Below, one piece after another: positions 28,199 through 61,516 of a stretch of DNA of 64,000 nucleotides. The DNA lies in assembly GCA_015058045.1 (NCBI GenBank), contig SVDC01000002.1, positions 62,001 through 126,000 of the forward strand, written 5' to 3'. The notes under the pieces were generated by a model that was given only the letters and a program-made list of their open reading frames with translations, did not search any database and had not been told where the DNA came from. The first letter of the stretch is position 1, and every line of letters begins with the position of its first letter. A program made the translations under genes and the position numbers. The DNA is from Cellulosilyticum sp. (GTDB lineage Bacteria; Bacillota; Clostridia; Lachnospirales; Cellulosilyticaceae).

Positions 28199-28342
28199 AG
28201 CCACGTATAAAACGTGACTTCGTAGACGCAGACAAAAAAATAACCCTGCCAAGCAGAGTAATGTTTCCTTGCCTAGTCGGGGTTTATAGTTTGTTTTATT
28301 TATTTACCTGTATATAATATCATAATATTAACATTTAAGCAA
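28199..28342 (-). promoter_or_regulatory. Leader promoter with early terminator, copy A2
   Basis: Minus strand: -35 TTGCTT, 17 bp, -10 TGATATTAT, conserved GGTAAATAAAT, then an AACCC/GGGTT stem with TTTTTTT at 28234-28280. A second hairpin AGTCACG/CGTGGCT (28199-28219) lies before the SD AAAGGAGG of the YqaJ-like gene. Confidence 0.7.
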
Positions 28343-36876: not shown

Positions 36877-37020
36877 AGCCACGCATAATGCGTGACTCTT
36901 GCAGACTAAAATAAAAATAACCCTGCTAAATAGTAGAGTTAGTCCCTATTTAGTCGGGGTTAATAGTATTGTTATAATTATTTACTTGAACATAATATCA
37001 CAAAAATCACATTTAATCAA
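36877..37020 (-). promoter_or_regulatory. Leader promoter with early terminator, copy A4
   Basis: Minus strand: -35 TTGATT, 17 bp, -10 TGATATTAT, conserved CAAGTAAATAATT, then AACCC-CTAAATAG/CTATTTAG-GGGTT stem and TTTTTATTTT. A second hairpin AGTCACGCA/TGCGTGGCT (36877-36897) lies just before the SD. Confidence 0.75.
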
Positions 37021-53604: not shown

Positions 53605-54401
53605 TTACGCTGCCTTCTTAAGTGTTTCTTTAGAAGTATTAGTGGCAAGCTTCATATCACTGATTAATTCTGGATACTGAGCAAATAATGATTTAAAAAT
53701 GTGCTCTAATACTGGAACGCATATAGAGTTCCCTGCGAGCTTTGCAATCTGTGCTTCAGTCAGTCCTGCTTTAATCATTTTATCATAGTCTTCATCTCTG
53801 AATCCCATAAGTCTTAACTTTTCCTTTGATGTAAACATTCTAAATTTATCATCAATAAGAACGCCCTGACGAGGCGATGTTGTAAGTGTGCTTGCGCAAT
53901 CTCCAACTCTGCCCCTACGGTTCTTTGAGTTTGGAAAAGCTAAATCTACTCGCTGATATTCATTGATAGGCACATAGCCAACACCTGCACCAAAGTCACC
54001 TTTTACAGCTTGTTTTACATACCACTGACCATTTACTTTCTTCGTAATTGCAAGCTCAGTATCTGTAAAGCTATTGTCTTCAAAACTTGCAGACAAGTCT
54101 AAGAACTGCTTAAGTGTATATCTTTCCTCTTCAGGTATAGCCTTTGGCATTTCAAAAACACCGTTTCTATCAGCAATATCATTAAGTACAGAAATACAAA
54201 AGAAACGATCTCTTGCTTGTGGAATGCCGTATTCTGATGCATCAAGCATATATGGAACCATAATGCTTCGCTCTGATACGTAACCACCTTTATCTACGTA
54301 TTTATTGCTACCACAAAATGTATTTGTGTAGCCGTAAGATTCCATAGTTCTAAGATAGTTTTCTAGTACTTCTGCATGCGAATATGCCATGTTAGATAGC
54401 G
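53605..54401 (-). CDS. C5 DNA methyltransferase, 3' exon (split by group II intron)
   Basis: Encodes the last 264 residues of the split enzyme. After splicing, exon 1 GTA-C joins CG-CTA-TCT to read ENVPLSNMAYSHAEVLENYL in frame. It contains motif VIII (GIPQARDRFFCISV), the target-recognition region, and motifs IX/X (RMFTSKEKLRLMGF and LAGNSICVPVLEHIF). The enzyme methylates cytosine at C5 in DNA. Full length after splicing is about 426 aa. The unspliced ORF starting at MAYSHAEV lacks the catalytic Cys and would be inactive. Confidence 0.85.
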
Positions 54402-54444
54402 ATAGGTAATCTTTTGATACAATCTCCAGATTTTCCCCCGCTCC

Positions 54445-54478
54445 GCACCGTGCATGCGACTTTCACCGCACACGGCGC
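54445..54478 (-). ncRNA. Group II intron domain V
   Basis: 34-nt catalytic hairpin with GCGCCGTG/CATGCACGGTGC-type pairing and a GAAA tetraloop in GGTGAAAGTC. The triad at its base reads CGC rather than the more common AGC. Confidence 0.85.
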
Positions 54479-54545
54479 ACCCTCGTTTTAATGTTTTCTT
54501 CAATTACTAGCTTATAACAAACTCCATTTTTCGAAATTAACAGAA

Positions 54546-56477
54546 CTAGTTTTTAACAGCTATAATTGGTTCTAACTCAATCAACTTTCTTAATTTATTC
54601 AACTTACTTAATTGCATTTCATCTAAATTTAATATCTTTAGATATTTATTGATTGTCTCAGCTCTCGTGGCATGCAGTAATATGTGAACGTCTTCTAGTA
54701 TTAGAATTAGGTTCGCATATTTGTCGCTTCCACCAAGAGATTTAGGAATTTTATGGTGACAGTGGATTTCACTAGCATTTTCGAATTCCTTATCAGTTAT
54801 ATAACATTTGCCCATTTGTGCTGAGAATAATGATATACGATTATCTGCATATTCAACCGTACCATGTACAGTCTGTCGCATCAATTCGTGCATTACTCTG
54901 GTGTTAATGCTCAAGTCTTTGTGCATCATCGCACGTCCTTCCTTAGTGTACGGAGTCTTGCCTCTTTTAAGGTTAGACGGGGCTTTGGTTTGTACATAAC
55001 TTATTGGATAGATTGGAGTACCTGTTGCCTTATCAAAGCGTAGCGTTTTGGATTTTCCATATCGCTGTTTTTCGTTTGGCGTTAGTTCTCTTCCTTTGCG
55101 AGAAAGTCTACCCTTTTCTCTTGTTGTTCTGAGCTGATGCATCATCACATCATTAATCAACCATGCTACTCTAGCAAAGTCTTTATTAATGTGTGAAGCG
55201 TGTTGATAGTAATTCTGCATACCCATTACCATTGAGTTATATCTCAAGGCTTGAGTAAGTGCGTCTTTATCATCTTTTGGATGTGCAATTCTCTTAATTT
55301 GTTGTTTTAATTTTTCAGTTTCACGAATTAAGTTCTTGTCTGCTACGTGTGACTCTGTAACAAACTTTCCTTTCTTTGGACGAAGACTAATTTTAAACCC
55401 TAAGAACTCACAATATTGCTTTTCCATATTAACTACCTTCGTTTTCTCTTCTGAGATATCAAGGTTAAGTCTTTGTTTAAGCCATTGTGTCACTGCATAT
55501 TTTGTCTTTAATGCAGATTCTTTAGTTCTACACAGTATCCTAAAGTCATCTGCATATCGTACAATATACATTTCTTTGAGATTAGTCTTCTTCATTGCCC
55601 TATATCCGCTGCCTTTGTTCTCGCTTCCATTTTTGTTAATCGTAACTGCATATTTGTATGCAACTGGATTCTTTTCCCATTGACTTTCAATCCAATGGTC
55701 GAGTTCGTTGAGAACAATGTTCGCAAGTAGAGGAGAAATAATACCTCCCTGAGGGGTTCCTTTATGGGGAATGTATTTCTCACCATTAGGCATCATAATA
55801 GGTGCTTTAAGGATTTGTTTGATTACATAGATAAGCTGTTTGTCTTGAATTCCAAGTGCCCATATTTGTTTGATAAGCTTTTGATGGTCAACATTGTCGA
55901 AGAATCCTCTAATATCAAATTCCACAACATAATGTAATCCCGTATAAGTGCTGTATCGTTCTAACTCAGCGATAGCATTCTCAGTAGAGCGTCCTGGTCT
56001 AAAACCATAGCTGTGCTCACTGAATTTGGCTTCACATATAGGCTCTATTACTTGCTTGATACATTGTTGTATCAATCTATCCCACATACAAGGGATACCA
56101 AGAGGCCTAACAGAACCATTTGGTTTTGGAATGTCTTTTCTTCTAACAGCTCTAGGGTTGTATCCTCTTTTTCCTGTAACGAATTTTCTGACATTAGAAA
56201 CTATCTCTTCAGAACTTAGCTTTTTCAAGTCATTGATACTAAGCTTGTCCGTTCCTGGAGTTATGCTGCCATGATTGGCTTTAATGTTTCTATATGCTAG
56301 AAGAATATTTTGCGAGCTTAAAATTAATGGCATCAATGAGTCAAAGATTTCCCCATCCTTTGCCTTAGCATAAAGCTCATCAAATGTTTCCTGCATATCA
56401 TAATATTCGTTATGACGGATACTATCCACTTTTGTTTGTAGCTCGTTGTCTTGTCTGTTTCGATACTGTTTTGCCAT
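54546..56477 (-). CDS. ltrA: Group II intron-encoded reverse transcriptase/maturase with HNH endonuclease
   Basis: A 643-aa LtrA-type protein. The reverse transcriptase domain includes PKPNGSVRPLGIP, YGFRPGRSTENAI, KGTPQGGIISPLLANI and the catalytic YADD (VRYADDFRI, about residue 308). The maturase X domain follows (residues about 385-500). A C-terminal HNH endonuclease closes the protein (CYITDKEF, then CHHKIPKSLGGSDKYANL). It helps the intron fold for splicing and carries out retrohoming by target-primed reverse transcription. No stop or frameshift is evident. SD GAGGTGATG precedes the start. Confidence 0.95.
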   Translation of the reverse strand: MAKQYRNRQDNELQTKVDSIRHNEYYDMQETFDELYAKAKDGEIFDSLMPLILSSQNILLAYRNIKANHGSITPGTDKLSINDLKKLSSEEIVSNVRKFVTGKRGYNPRAVRRKDIPKPNGSVRPLGIPCMWDRLIQQCIKQVIEPICEAKFSEHSYGFRPGRSTENAIAELERYSTYTGLHYVVEFDIRGFFDNVDHQKLIKQIWALGIQDKQLIYVIKQILKAPIMMPNGEKYIPHKGTPQGGIISPLLANIVLNELDHWIESQWEKNPVAYKYAVTINKNGSENKGSGYRAMKKTNLKEMYIVRYADDFRILCRTKESALKTKYAVTQWLKQRLNLDISEEKTKVVNMEKQYCEFLGFKISLRPKKGKFVTESHVADKNLIRETEKLKQQIKRIAHPKDDKDALTQALRYNSMVMGMQNYYQHASHINKDFARVAWLINDVMMHQLRTTREKGRLSRKGRELTPNEKQRYGKSKTLRFDKATGTPIYPISYVQTKAPSNLKRGKTPYTKEGRAMMHKDLSINTRVMHELMRQTVHGTVEYADNRISLFSAQMGKCYITDKEFENASEIHCHHKIPKSLGGSDKYANLILILEDVHILLHATRAETINKYLKILNLDEMQLSKLNKLRKLIELEPIIAVKN

Positions 56478-57173
56478 AGGGCATCACCTCCTCTTATCAG
56501 GAGTGACTTCTTTTTATCTTACTCGAAATCCCTATTACAAACTATGTATTGAATCATTCATTAAAACGACTTGAGGCCATCATTCCTTTTCCCATTACAG
56601 GAAATATCATCACTTCGACCTCTACTTTTCGGCATTAGTTAAGGAGCTTATTGTTCTTCGTCTCCAACATCAATAGATGTCTAATACCTTTCCTTGTTCC
56701 GATAATCCTATCTTTACATATACCCTTAGGTTCCTACTCTAGGCCTGTTTTACTTGAGTATGCCTGTAACATACTATGGACTTTCATAACGTACAAATTT
56801 TACTCATCCACATAAAACTCCTAATTAAAGGAAGATACATTTCTATATCTTGGAAATATAGACCCGTACATTCGCAGGTTCGTCAGTTTCTTCGGCTCGA
56901 AACATTCTAACCATAGGTATTTTATAGACCTCCGGCATATAGGGTATATAGCTCACCTCTGAGCCACTTTCGTCACCATTATGTGTTACGATACCTCTCT
57001 GCCGACTTTAGCGGGCTTCACACATCTTAGTTTTCACTATATGATGCATGCCGCAGTATCAAGGGAAGCGTTTCAGGGCGTTACCCCATCATTCCACTTC
57101 TCGGATTGTCAGTTTACAAACTGATTATAATTTCAGCTTGTAGCCAACCTTTTCAGTTAGCAACAAGTCGCAC

Positions 57174-57657
57174 GTACGTTTTCCCATATAACAACCTTTG
57201 GCTGTCTTGTGAGCTCTCTATACCCATCAGAAGGGTTAGGGTCTAATATCTGAAGTGTTCTCTCATAAAGAATAGAACGGCCAGTATTTATATCGTTTTT
57301 GCCCTCCCTGCTGAAATCCTGACATGGTGAGCCATGTACCAGGATATCTACATTCATATTCCATAGACGTATATCCTGTGGTCTATTAGATAAATCAAAC
57401 ATCTGATTATAGGCCTGTACTGCAAAAGGAAGAACTTCGACATAATCGATACTCTTTACCTTTTCAGCTGCCAAGTTTCTAAGCTGACGCTTATTTGCAT
57501 CTGGGTTTGAATCCTTAACCATCTGTGATATTACGTTTTCTAATGCTCTTCTTGGGGCTCCAATACCACCAAAAAGTTCAAGTAAGTGAAGTGGCTGTGA
57601 CTGCATATCACAATCTACTACATTTTTCTCTTTGTGATTCTTAAAATCACGACTCAT
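57174..57657 (-). CDS. C5 DNA methyltransferase, 5' exon
   Basis: Encodes residues 1-161 of the split enzyme. Motif I is [15 protein letters not shown] (residues 26-40), motif [11 protein letters not shown] carries the catalytic Cys, and motif VI VIWENV ends exactly at the intron junction. Start ATG 57657 has SD AAGGAGG. In the unspliced transcript translation would run into the intron and stop after RATCC. The adjacent gene order (105-aa protein, second C5 methyltransferase) suggests a methylation cassette without an obvious cognate endonuclease. Confidence 0.88.
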
Positions 57658-58072: not shown

Positions 58073-59515
58073 TTATGCTACTGCCAATGAAAGTCCAAGG
58101 CTCTCGTTTGAATATCTGTAAAGAGCATTTTTAATGATGCTCTTCGCAAATGAGGAGATTGCCTGTGTTACGCCATTTCCGCACTGTTGCTGTCTATCGT
58201 TTATAGAACCCAAAAACTTAAAGTTCTTATCAAGTCCCATAATAGCAGCTGCCTCAGATACAGATAAAATTCTGTTTTCTGTAGGATGTGTGAGGTTTAC
58301 CTTACGCCAGTTTGTAATGGTTACAGAAGGCTCATTTTCGTCTAAACGTCTATAGACATTACTATGACGATCTAAATGTTCCATCTCCTTGATGTACTTA
58401 TAATTTCCACCTTGAGGAACCTGAGCCATCTTAGCCTGCGTAGATGCCGAAGCTTTAGTAATATCATTGTAGTTGTACCACTCTGATGTTACTTTCTTTA
58501 AAGCATCCTTTACTACCTTTTTTGATGTAAGGCATACATCTGGAATAACAATCTTTCCCATTGCTTTGATTGAACCTATTAATAGCATTCTTTTACGTTT
58601 GCTATATCCACCTACTTCCCAGTCATTAACGACTGAATAAGTGATGTTATAGTCATCAGAAAGAGCTGTTAGTACTCTTTCTAAGTACTTGCCCTTTTCC
58701 TTTGTAATAAACTGCTCTACATTTTCAATCAAAAACATAAGTGGCTTCTTAGCCTGTACAATACGAATGTAATCATCAATAAGAAGTCTCTTTGAATTAT
58801 CCTGCACCTCATTGCCCGCTCTATTAGCATTGCTATATCCCTGGCAACATGGGCCACCGATAATTAAATCAGCGTTTGGAACCTGAGCTTCTTTTAAATC
58901 TCGAATATCCATACATAAGATATGATCTCCAATGTTAGCTTTATAAGTTTCGCAAGCGGATTTATCAAAATCCACAGCAAACTTAATATCAAAGCTTTCA
59001 TCTTTCTTGAACGGATAATCAAGTAACCCTGCTCCAGAAAACAGTGAAACTGTATCATACACATACGATAAATCAGTTCTAGTCTTCTGAGAAAACAGGC
59101 CTGAAGCTGTGAGCATATCAACTAAAGCTGAGTCATGCTCGATAAGAGAACTCTTATCAATTTCAAAGGTAATATCTTCAGATTTGTCGATTAAATCAAC
59201 AATATCTCTATCAGATAAACCTTCTGTATTTACATTCTTTTTTATTACATGGACGATAATCTTATTATCTAAGACTTCTACTTCCATGTATGCTGCCATG
59301 CTCATCACCTGTCTGATTTCCTCATTTCTAAGGTCAACAAGTGGCTTTGCATTAGCACCTTTTCTACTCATCTTATATTTGCCTTTTTCATCGGCTAAGA
59401 TGATTACCTCTGAGCTTGCATTATCTACAATATATCTATAGTGTGTGCCTGCCCTAAAATGTTCGTTTTCTGCAAATGAGAATGTTAGTCCTCTATTGCT
59501 TTTCTTAATACGCAT
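58073..59515 (-). CDS. C5 cytosine DNA methyltransferase (second)
   Basis: 480 aa from ATG 59515 (MRIKKSNRGLTFSF), preceded by AGGAGG; the longer ORF start is leader sequence. The N-terminal 155 residues are extra. The methyltransferase core begins with motif I SLFSGAGLLDYPF, motif IV GGPCCQGYSN carries the catalytic Cys, motif VI is FLIENV, motif VIII GGYSKRKRMLLIG, and motif X near CGNGVTQAIS. All key residues are intact. No restriction enzyme adjoins it, so it may protect the plasmid from host restriction. Driven by leader A6. Confidence 0.9.
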   Translation of the reverse strand: MRIKKSNRGLTFSFAENEHFRAGTHYRYIVDNASSEVIILADEKGKYKMSRKGANAKPLVDLRNEEIRQVMSMAAYMEVEVLDNKIIVHVIKKNVNTEGLSDRDIVDLIDKSEDITFEIDKSSLIEHDSALVDMLTASGLFSQKTRTDLSYVYDTVSLFSGAGLLDYPFKKDESFDIKFAVDFDKSACETYKANIGDHILCMDIRDLKEAQVPNADLIIGGPCCQGYSNANRAGNEVQDNSKRLLIDDYIRIVQAKKPLMFLIENVEQFITKEKGKYLERVLTALSDDYNITYSVVNDWEVGGYSKRKRMLLIGSIKAMGKIVIPDVCLTSKKVVKDALKKVTSEWYNYNDITKASASTQAKMAQVPQGGNYKYIKEMEHLDRHSNVYRRLDENEPSVTITNWRKVNLTHPTENRILSVSEAAAIMGLDKNFKFLGSINDRQQQCGNGVTQAISSFAKSIIKNALYRYSNESLGLSLAVA

Positions 59516-59828: not shown

Positions 59829-60278
59829 ATGAATAAGAATGTGAAAGAATTAAGAGAATTAACAGGTTTATCTCAAAGCCAGTTTTCTAAAGAGTTCAAT
59901 ATACCGATAAGAACTTTGCAGAAGTGGGAATCTGGTGACAGAAAACCGTCAGAATATATCGTAGAGTTAGTATGTGAAAGCCTTTTATATAGAGGCCTTC
60001 TTGAACCTTGTGATGTTTTTGGAAAGGAAAATAACGATATGATAAACGAAACACTAAAAACCTACTTTGGAACAACTGTAGAGGAGCTTAATACTATTGA
60101 TATAAAAGAGTGGACAGCCTCCCACCCTAACCGCTGTGCTCTTGTCATCTTAAATGATGATGGCAAAACAGCAAAAATAGTTGTTCAGACGGCTCTTAAA
60201 GGAAAATCCGCTATGGAACAAAGAAAAAATCTGATGTTTCCAGATAACGATAAATTTGCAGTTATAAGTCAGTCTTAA
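59829..60278 (+). CDS. XRE/HTH-type regulator
   Basis: 149 aa from ATG 59829 (MNKNVKELRELTGLSQSQFS), after AGAGG; the upstream ORF extension lies in the promoter and operator. The HTH covers residues 3-55 (LSQSQFSKEFNIPIRTLQKWESGDRKPSEYI), close to HigA/antitoxin-type plasmid regulators. The C-terminal part (WTASHPNRCALVILNDDGKTAK) is an unrecognised small domain. It probably represses its own promoter and perhaps the divergent leader A6. Confidence 0.82.
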   Translation: MNKNVKELRELTGLSQSQFSKEFNIPIRTLQKWESGDRKPSEYIVELVCESLLYRGLLEPCDVFGKENNDMINETLKTYFGTTVEELNTIDIKEWTASHPNRCALVILNDDGKTAKIVVQTALKGKSAMEQRKNLMFPDNDKFAVISQS

Positions 60279-60294: not shown

Positions 60295-60564
60295 ATGAGT
60301 AAGAAAATAGATACAGCTATCACAGAACTTAATAAGCTTCTTGAATTAAAGCCTGAAGATGGTGTTGGGCGTGATATGTACAACATCATTAACGAGCAAA
60401 AGAAAATCAAGAAAGCAATTGCTGTCTTGAGTAACAGCGGATCTTCTGAAGAGACGATTAGCAAAGCTGATGTACTTAAAATCGTAAAAGATCTGCACGA
60501 TTTTTGCCGTCCAGATGTCCTTGATGACGCTGTAAAACAAATAGAAGCACTTACGACTGCATAA
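60295..60564 (+). CDS. Small helical hypothetical protein
   Basis: 89 aa, almost entirely helical (IDTAITELNKLLELKPEDG, ADVLKIVKDLHDFCRPDVLDDAVKQ). SD AAGGAG; 16 bp after the HTH gene, so the two are one operon. Unknown function. Confidence 0.6.
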   Translation: MSKKIDTAITELNKLLELKPEDGVGRDMYNIINEQKKIKKAIAVLSNSGSSEETISKADVLKIVKDLHDFCRPDVLDDAVKQIEALTTA

Positions 60565-60603: not shown

Positions 60604-61089
60604 TTACTGTTTCTTTGCTTTGCAATTTTCGATATCTTCATCAGTTGGCTCGCAATAGCAAGTCACAAACTTAAATCCCATATCATCTTTTCTCATTGCC
60701 TTCGCCAGTACAACAACTATTCTATGGCACTCGCAAGCACCATCATTCCAGTTATGCCATTTATAACTATAAAATCCATGACCTAAAAGCTTATCACAGT
60801 CAAATTCTGCAACATAGCTATCACCATCGCTATAGTCATTAAGCCATTCTACAAGCTCATCAGCATAATCAAGAAGAGCTAGTTTTGCAGCTTCAACAAC
60901 TTCATCTTCTGTAAGGATAAAGGTTGATGCACCATATATACCATTGCCATCAGATGTTTTTGTTGTAGTTACACGATGTATTAAATCTGAATCAGTCATG
61001 TTAAGGTGTCTATCAATGTGACATCCCATAGCTTTCATATTGTATACATCTAAACCGTTTATTATTCTTGTAAATTCATTCTTTTGCAT
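60604..61089 (-). CDS. RNase A-like (CdiA-CT type) domain protein
   Basis: 161 aa from ATG 61089 (MQKNEFTRIINGLDVYNMKA), after GGAGG. The sequence follows the bacterial RNase A-like CdiA C-terminal domain: CHIDRHLNMTDSDLIHRV near the start, GASTFILTEDEVVEAAKLAL and ADELVEWL in the middle, IVVVLAKAM and FVTCYCEP at the end. The His to Arg spacing (H, then R eleven residues later) and the C-terminal T-x-Y match the catalytic set described for CdiA-CT of Yersinia kristensenii. If so, it would cut RNA. Here it is stand-alone, without secretion signal or delivery protein; an immunity gene is not obvious. Confidence 0.65.
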   Translation of the reverse strand: MQKNEFTRIINGLDVYNMKAMGCHIDRHLNMTDSDLIHRVTTTKTSDGNGIYGASTFILTEDEVVEAAKLALLDYADELVEWLNDYSDGDSYVAEFDCDKLLGHGFYSYKWHNWNDGACECHRIVVVLAKAMRKDDMGFKFVTCYCEPTDEDIENCKAKKQ

Positions 61090-61116
61090 AGTCGCAAACC
61101 TCCAAATCATAAAACC

Positions 61117-61197
61117 GTCACCCAAGGGTGACACAATAAAGTAACACCCTTGAAAGGGACGGATAAGCTTTCGCTCTTATGGTTGTCCGTTTACAAC
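61117..61197 (-). promoter_or_regulatory. Multi-hairpin 5' leader of the RNase A-like gene
   Basis: Minus strand: GTTGT-AAACGG-ACAAC, ATAAG-AGCGAAAG-CTTAT, CCCTT-TC-AAGGG, then GTCACC-CTT-GGGTGAC. AAGGGTG can pair with CACCCTT (7 bp), and ACGGA with TCCGT, offering alternative or kissing structures before the SD. Confidence 0.5.
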
Positions 61198-61210
61198 CCG
61201 CAATATTAAA

Positions 61211-61516
61211 TTAACAAGCTACCTCTGAAAGATACCTTTCGTTATCCTTCTTCAGCATGTGGAAACCTCTACCGTTATATAAACGGTTGCGCCACTCATA
61301 ATATGAAATTACCTGGCGACCATTATGAAGTTCCGCACTTTCCTGCTCACACATAGCACGTTCTAAGTGTCTGTGATATGCTCTACTGCTTAGATCAGAA
61401 GTGATTGACGAATACTCCTCATCGCACTTCTTTTCTACTGTATAGGCTACACCATTTCTGTCTAACACTGTTGTCATGTAACCTATCAAATTTGTTCTTA
61501 TATTTCTTTTAGCCAT
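61211..61516 (-). CDS. Hypothetical protein (101 aa)
   Basis: Starts at ATG 61516 (MAKRNIRTNLIGYMTTVLDRNG), after GGAGG; the longer ORF is leader. Basic, helical C-terminal half (AYHRHLERAMCEQESAELHNG). No family recognised. Preceded by the third copy of the three-hairpin leader. Directly upstream of the RNase A-like gene; a partner role is possible but unsupported. Confidence 0.55.
   Translation of the reverse strand: MAKRNIRTNLIGYMTTVLDRNGVAYTVEKKCDEEYSSITSDLSSRAYHRHLERAMCEQESAELHNGRQVISYYEWRNRLYNGRGFHMLKKDNERYLSEVAC

What the first reader, a model, noticed from the sequence alone, without database searches (positions are those of the whole stretch)
60604..61089. Stand-alone RNase A-like protein resembling CdiA toxin domains
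Sequence shows H-x(10)-R spacing in DRHLNMTDSDLIHRV, the ASTF segment, EWL and a terminal VTCY, matching the bacterial RNase A-like CdiA-CT family, including its reported His/Arg/Thr/Tyr active site. CdiA-CT domains normally sit at the end of giant secreted proteins with an immunity gene. Here it is a 161-aa cytoplasmic-looking plasmid gene with a structured leader, which may hold expression down.
Basis: partly seen in the sequence, partly recalled or inferred. Interest (0 to 1): 0.68.

Follow-up and report, generated by a model that had tools for sequence, protein, structure and literature searches.

The report
Stand-alone RNase A-like plasmid protein
A large bacterial plasmid carries a small protein that is a free-standing version of the RNA-cutting tip of a bacterial competition toxin, with its known active-site residues kept but without the delivery part or the usual immunity gene, so it most likely acts inside the cell that carries it.

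Summary
The gene is on the minus strand (61089 to 60604, 161 aa). It matches PF18431 (bacterial CdiA-CT RNase A domain) at E = 6e-5, 24.2 bits, just under the 27-bit cut-off. The four active-site residues reported for the Yersinia kristensenii toxin fall in register as H28, R39, T143 and Y145. A profile built without this protein scores it 27.6 bits; the best of 5,000 shuffles scores 8.0. An AlphaFold model built with four relatives matches that toxin's structure (5e3e) first among 350,542 PDB chains; without relatives the model is useless.

It is a stand-alone gene on a megaplasmid with conjugation genes: no secretion trunk, and no CdiI_2-type immunity gene was found. A second, conserved stand-alone family turned up in Blautia, Parablautia, Hungatella and others (8 loci, catalytic residues invariant, purifying selection).

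The leader is real (z = -5.8; start codon paired), but structured leaders are common on this plasmid, so it is no sign of toxin-specific silencing. The protein is unusually acidic (-12).

Best reading: an intracellular RNase A-superfamily enzyme of mobile elements, used in conflict with the host or its defences. Activity, substrate and antidote are untested.

The parts
60604..61089 (-). RNase A-like stand-alone gene, 161 aa (P0001), ATG at 61089 behind GGAGG
   Evidence: Pfam PF18431 E = 6.2e-5; codon usage typical of the plasmid, CAI 0.79, GC3 0.25
60655..61020 (-). RNAse_A_bac domain, residues 24-145 (profile positions 3-112 of 113)
   Evidence: fold match to 5e3e_B, probability 1.00, target TM-score 0.72
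61006..61008 (-). codon of H28, in register with catalytic His175 of CdiA-CT Ykris
   Evidence: alignments; active site from PMC9086364
60973..60975 (-). codon of R39, in register with Arg186
60661..60663 (-). codon of T143, in register with Thr276
60655..60657 (-). codon of Y145, in register with Tyr278
61090..61210 (-). structured 5' leader: local hairpins possible, or one long nested fold that pairs the start-codon region; terminator-like hairpin at 61133-61116
   Evidence: (z = -5.8)
61211..61516 (-). upstream neighbour, 101 aa, pI 8.5, no family match, own structured leader; possible but unsupported antidote
60295..60564 (+). convergent 89-aa protein, no credible family match; possible but unsupported antidote
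59829..60278 (+). XRE/HTH_3 regulator just upstream of the 89-aa gene
   Evidence: HTH_3 E = 5.5e-9
58073..59515 (-). C5 cytosine methyltransferase with a strong structured leader
   Evidence: E = 7.6e-50; leader

Best explanation
P0001 is a stand-alone bacterial RNase A-superfamily enzyme, a divergent relative of PF18431, made in the cytoplasm of the plasmid's host and not delivered to other cells. SHOWN: homology, all four catalytic positions in register, no secretion trunk, megaplasmid with conjugation genes, structured leader, and a second conserved stand-alone family in Lachnospiraceae. INFERRED: it is catalytically active and cleaves RNA or cyclic nucleotides by a metal-independent His/Arg/Thr/Tyr mechanism; the leader keeps its level low or conditional; and the plasmid uses it in conflict with the host or its defences during establishment or maintenance, as it presumably does its neighbouring methyltransferases, R-M gene and toxin-antitoxin pair.
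For: PF18431 match. Profile without P0001: 27.6 bits against 8.0 for the best of 5,000 shuffles, unique on the contig. H28/R39/T143/Y145 aligned with the Ykris catalytic residues. Foldseek top hit 5e3e_B, E = 2.9e-4, probability 1.00. Eight stand-alone relatives in Lachnospiraceae with all four residues invariant and dN/dS about 0.03-0.16 where dS was computable, in gene blocks with PAPS reductase- and PcfK-type genes. Megaplasmid backbone with VirD4-type coupling protein, TraG ATPase, Rep3, ParA, actin-like protein, topoisomerase and SSB. Neighbouring C5 MTases, MmeI-type R-M and Phd/ParE pair. Leader z = -5.8.
Against: No activity data. No close homologue of P0001 was found, so its own selection cannot be measured. 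Net charge -12 against about +2 to +5 for canonical members is odd for an enzyme that binds RNA. The domain has an extra insert with CxCH, and a CxC around the catalytic Tyr. The fold model is moderate (pLDDT 64) and depends on relatives in the alignment. No relaxase of the one family tested (PF03432) was found, so self-transfer is not shown.
Confidence: 0.58

Rival explanations
1. It is the toxin of a plasmid addiction (toxin-antitoxin) pair, neutralised by the upstream 101-aa protein or the convergent 89-aa protein.
For: Catalytic residues kept; small neighbours of unknown family; the upstream 101-aa protein is basic (pI 8.5) and could bind an acidic partner. In the Lachnospiraceae family a ~90-aa gene always follows directly (8 of 8 loci).
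Against: The 101-aa gene lies 121 nt away with its own leader and the 89-aa gene is convergent, unlike most toxin-antitoxin operons. No CdiI_2 match near it or, above cut-off, in the genome. The ~90-aa gene of the Lachnospiraceae loci was not seen here, and the gene after it is equally conserved there, so partnership cannot be singled out.
Confidence: 0.22
2. It is an orphan toxin cassette left over from a polymorphic toxin system, with no present role of its own.
For: Canonical family members are C-terminal toxin domains (L011 with a CdiI_2 neighbour). L009 looks like a loose cassette beside IS elements.
Against: Proper ribosome site, strongly structured leader, plasmid-typical codon usage (CAI 0.79) and an intact catalytic set argue for a resident working gene. 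No trunk gene lies nearby.
Confidence: 0.1
3. The fold has been kept for binding only: an acidic, non-catalytic regulator or decoy.
For: Net charge -12, pI 4.8, an insert and 7 cysteines set it apart from canonical members.
Against: At about 22-25% identity all four catalytic residues are still kept, which binding alone does not explain.
Confidence: 0.1

Closest known systems
CdiA-CT of Yersinia kristensenii 33638 (PDB 5e3e; Batot et al. 2017, read through the review PMC9086364)
   Same: Predicted fold (top Foldseek hit) and the H/R/T/Y catalytic residues with identical local spacing (11 and 2)
   Different: That one is the C-terminal tip of a giant secreted protein with CdiI next to it, is slightly basic (about +2) and has no cysteines. 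P0001 is free-standing, acidic (-12), has 7 Cys, an insert and a 16-residue tail, and no CdiI_2 gene was found
Stand-alone 146-aa RNAse_A_bac proteins of Lachnospiraceae (L023-L030: Blautia, Parablautia, Hungatella and others; found here)
   Same: Free-standing, no secretion trunk, all four catalytic residues invariant, in element-like gene blocks
   Different: Closer to canonical PF18431 (82.6 bits), only slightly acidic, always followed by the same ~90-aa gene, which was not seen here; pairwise hhalign with P0001 gives only E = 0.0013
NCBIfam NF041883, RNase A-like domain-containing lipoprotein
   Same: Same kind of domain, weak match (E = 0.0084)
   Different: Named as a lipoprotein; 16 bits against a cut-off of 200, so P0001 is not a member
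pLS20 EGeRS1 establishment-gene upstream regions (PMC8708921)
   Same: Repeated inverted-repeat regions in front of plasmid genes, predicted to fold as ssDNA or RNA
   Different: 400-600 bp and GC-rich, against leaders of about 100 nt here; no sequence relation was tested

Membership tests
PF18431 RNAse_A_bac | Profile score over the curated cut-off (27 bits) | tested here: not met
   24.2 bits, E = 6.2e-5, nearly full length; a divergent relative, not a curated-threshold member
PF18431 RNAse_A_bac | Catalytic His, Arg, Thr, Tyr in register | tested here: met
   H28, R39, T143, Y145
PF18431 RNAse_A_bac | RNase A-like fold | tested here: met
   Foldseek top hits 5e3e_B/D, probability 1.00, target TM 0.72-0.76; the model was built with family relatives, and the single-sequence control was uninformative
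PF18431 RNAse_A_bac | Metal-independent RNase / cCMP hydrolysis | not testable with these tools
   needs the protein
CDI / polymorphic toxin effector | C-terminal position in a large secreted protein | tested here: not met
   161-aa gene with its own ribosome site; 23 residues before the domain
CDI / polymorphic toxin effector | Adjacent CdiI immunity gene | tested here: not met
   no CdiI_2 in the tested neighbours; one sub-cut-off match with stops elsewhere in the genome; an immunity gene of unknown type is not excluded
Type II toxin-antitoxin pair | Tightly coupled partner gene that neutralises it | tested here: inconclusive
   121-nt gap and separate leader upstream, convergent gene downstream; neutralisation not testable here
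NF041883 RNase A lipoprotein | Score over cut-off | tested here: not met
   16.1 of 200 bits

The most novel reading that the evidence does not exclude
Conjugative plasmids and integrative elements of gut Clostridia have adopted the bacterial RNase A fold as an intracellular establishment factor that destroys a defence signal or guide (for example cyclic oligonucleotides, cCMP or CRISPR RNA) in the new host.
Probability: 0.15. Interest if true: 0.75.

Novelty: new variant of a known kind. Interest (0 to 1): 0.46.

Why it matters
[quoted passage not shown] Two separate stand-alone lineages on apparent mobile elements, one of them under purifying selection with an intact active site, do not fit that picture. 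They suggest the fold also works inside the cell, in plasmid-host conflict. The proteins are small, the catalytic residues are predicted, and simple expression and hydrolysis assays would settle the question.

Tried and rejected
Close homologues of P0001 in genomes, viral contigs, phages and plasmids: none. The partial match in G019 (L003) covers only profile positions 72-113 of an unrelated-looking protein and was dropped. The 7rdr hit is a sum of weak matches to a repeat protein and was rejected. The single-sequence model was too poor to use. P0001 has no match in PADLOC or PHROGs. No similar fold among viral proteins. The Roseburia plasmid with the nearest Rep protein carries mostly unrelated metabolic genes in the part read (about 97 of 243 kb) and was not pursued. 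The leader as toxin-specific silencing was rejected because many plasmid genes have strongly structured leaders.

Full report
What is there. The interval 60604-61089 read on the + strand is full of stops. On the minus strand it is a 161-aa gene with ATG at 61089 and GGAGG in front. The window lies in a 128,557-base contig of a 4.16-Mb genome in the same taxonomic order as Lachnospiraceae.

Is the resemblance real? Pfam PF18431 matches residues 24-145 to profile positions 3-112 of 113 with E = 6.2e-5, 24.2 bits against a curated cut-off of 27. To test this independently I built a profile from 11 other members without this protein. It scores P0001 27.6 bits, while 5,000 shuffles of P0001 reach at most 8.0, and it picks only this frame among the contig's 431 open frames. 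The profile of alignment A2 (which includes P0001) matches the chain of CdiA-CT from Y. kristensenii at E = 1.3e-22; P0001 alone does so only at E = 1.2. In these alignments the published catalytic residues His175, Arg186, Thr276 and Tyr278 (PMC9086364) fall on H28, R39, T143 and Y145 with the same spacings (11 and 2).

Fold. An AlphaFold2 model from a five-sequence alignment (P0001 and four relatives) has pLDDT 64 and pTM 0.55. Its best PDB matches are two chains of the CdiA-CT/CdiI entry 5e3e, with probability 1.00 and target TM-scores 0.72-0.76; the next hit has probability 0.10, and a vertebrate RNase A-family protein (RNase 6) appears weakly at rank 23. A model from the single sequence is useless (pLDDT 38.5), so the fold evidence leans on the relatives used and is not independent of the homology.

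Stand-alone or fragment? The gene has its own ribosome site, only 23 residues before the domain, no apparent signal sequence (by eye) and plasmid-typical codon usage (CAI 0.79). No large secreted protein precedes it. The canonical arrangement was seen in L011: a 438-aa protein ending in the domain, followed by a CdiI_2 gene (E = 1.6e-18). No CdiI_2 relative was found in the tested neighbours of P0001, and only one sub-cut-off match with stops elsewhere in the genome.

Relatives. PF18431 is rare in these samples: matches over the cut-off in 2 of 392 genomes of the order, 1 of 391 of the class, 1 of 399 of the phylum and 3 of 348 of the family of G282. One of these led to a second stand-alone family. 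It is 146 aa, found in 8 Lachnospiraceae-type loci including Blautia, Parablautia and Hungatella, with H38, R49, T141 and Y143 invariant in the seven aligned. dN/dS is about 0.03-0.16 for pairs where dS was computable; dS is saturated in many pairs. It stands at the head of a gene block with a ~90-aa gene and a ~226-aa gene (both present in 8 of 8 loci) and, further on, PAPS-reductase and PcfK-like genes; PcfK is known from conjugative plasmids (own knowledge). That these blocks are mobile elements is inferred from gene content. The direct hhalign comparison of P0001 with this family gives E = 0.0013 over residues 25-146, although hhalign's own probability is low (18%). No viral relative was found by sequence or fold.

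Surroundings. The contig carries a VirD4-type coupling protein, a TraG ATPase, Rep3 initiator, ParA, actin-like protein, topoisomerase, SSB, RecD2 and RecG helicases: a large plasmid with conjugation genes. No relaxase of family PF03432 was found in the genome, so self-transfer is not shown. Within about 20 kb of P0001 are two C5 methyltransferases (one split by a group II intron), an MmeI-type R-M gene and a Phd/ParE-type pair.

Leader. The leader folds much better than shuffles (z = -5.8, 0 of 200) and its predicted structure pairs the start-codon region, with the GGAGG partly exposed. Such leaders are common here. Of 55 leaders on the contig, 15 have z < -3, against 3 of 73 on other contigs of the genome (Fisher p = 2e-4), and all 15 are in front of minus-strand genes. 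That scan took a wrong start for the RNase gene and gave it z = -2.4; the value for the true start is the one. A hairpin AGTCAC...GTGGCT before the ribosome site occurs 7 times in the genome, 6 of them on this contig, with inner pairs that differ in a compensatory way between copies. The RNase leader has a similar but not identical hairpin. Several of these leaders, like the RNase leader, can form either separate local hairpins or one long nested structure that buries the ribosome site or start codon. Repression is therefore plausible but inferred, and it is not special to this gene. A precedent for repeated structured regions in front of plasmid establishment genes is pLS20 EGeRS1 (PMC8708921).

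How it most likely works. Established: an RNase A-superfamily protein with the catalytic set in place, free-standing, plasmid-borne, with a structured leader. Inferred: it is active, cuts RNA or a cyclic nucleotide without metal, is kept at a low or conditional level, and serves the plasmid inside its own host. The neighbourhood fits a conflict or establishment role; methyltransferases, toxin-antitoxin genes and SSBs are families enriched in plasmid leading regions (PMC11541004), but I could not place an origin of transfer. The strong negative charge (-12) is the main reason for doubting bulk RNA as substrate.

Verdict. The added result is that stand-alone forms exist in at least two lineages on apparent mobile elements. 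The toxin-and-antidote reading with the 101-aa neighbour is unsupported.

Noticed in passing
window about 4.2-63.6 kb, minus strand (for example 18.2k, 28.2k, 30.9k, 36.9k, 50.2k, 51.9k, 59.5k, 61.5k, 63.6k); also L034 on contig C22: Many short structured 5' leaders, the strong ones all on minus-strand genes, with a covarying hairpin AGTCAC...GTGGCT before the ribosome site in several; not matched by any Rfam family. Possibly a shared RNA-level control.
   Followed up: partly
window 28236-28290, 36913-36967, and near 31.4k and 59.7k: A second repeated element, on the minus strand ACCCCGAC-stem-GCAGGGT (or similar) followed by a T tract, in front of several genes.
   Followed up: no
window 53605-57657: C5 methyltransferase gene split by a group II intron with its reverse transcriptase (54396-57117), giving 166-aa and 261-aa halves.
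   Followed up: no
L023-L030: A conserved gene block in Lachnospiraceae headed by a stand-alone RNase A-like gene: ~90-aa gene, ~226-aa gene and, further on in several loci, PAPS reductase and PcfK-like genes.
   Followed up: partly
window 60604-61089, residues 109-122 and 143-146: An insert with CxCH (C119, C121, H122) and a CxC (C144, C146) around the catalytic Tyr: a possible metal site not seen in the relatives.
   Followed up: no
L005, 1387-2319: A 310-aa protein with the RNase A-like domain at the N-terminal side and an extra C-terminal part, followed by a 180-aa gene: another unusual arrangement of the family.
   Followed up: no
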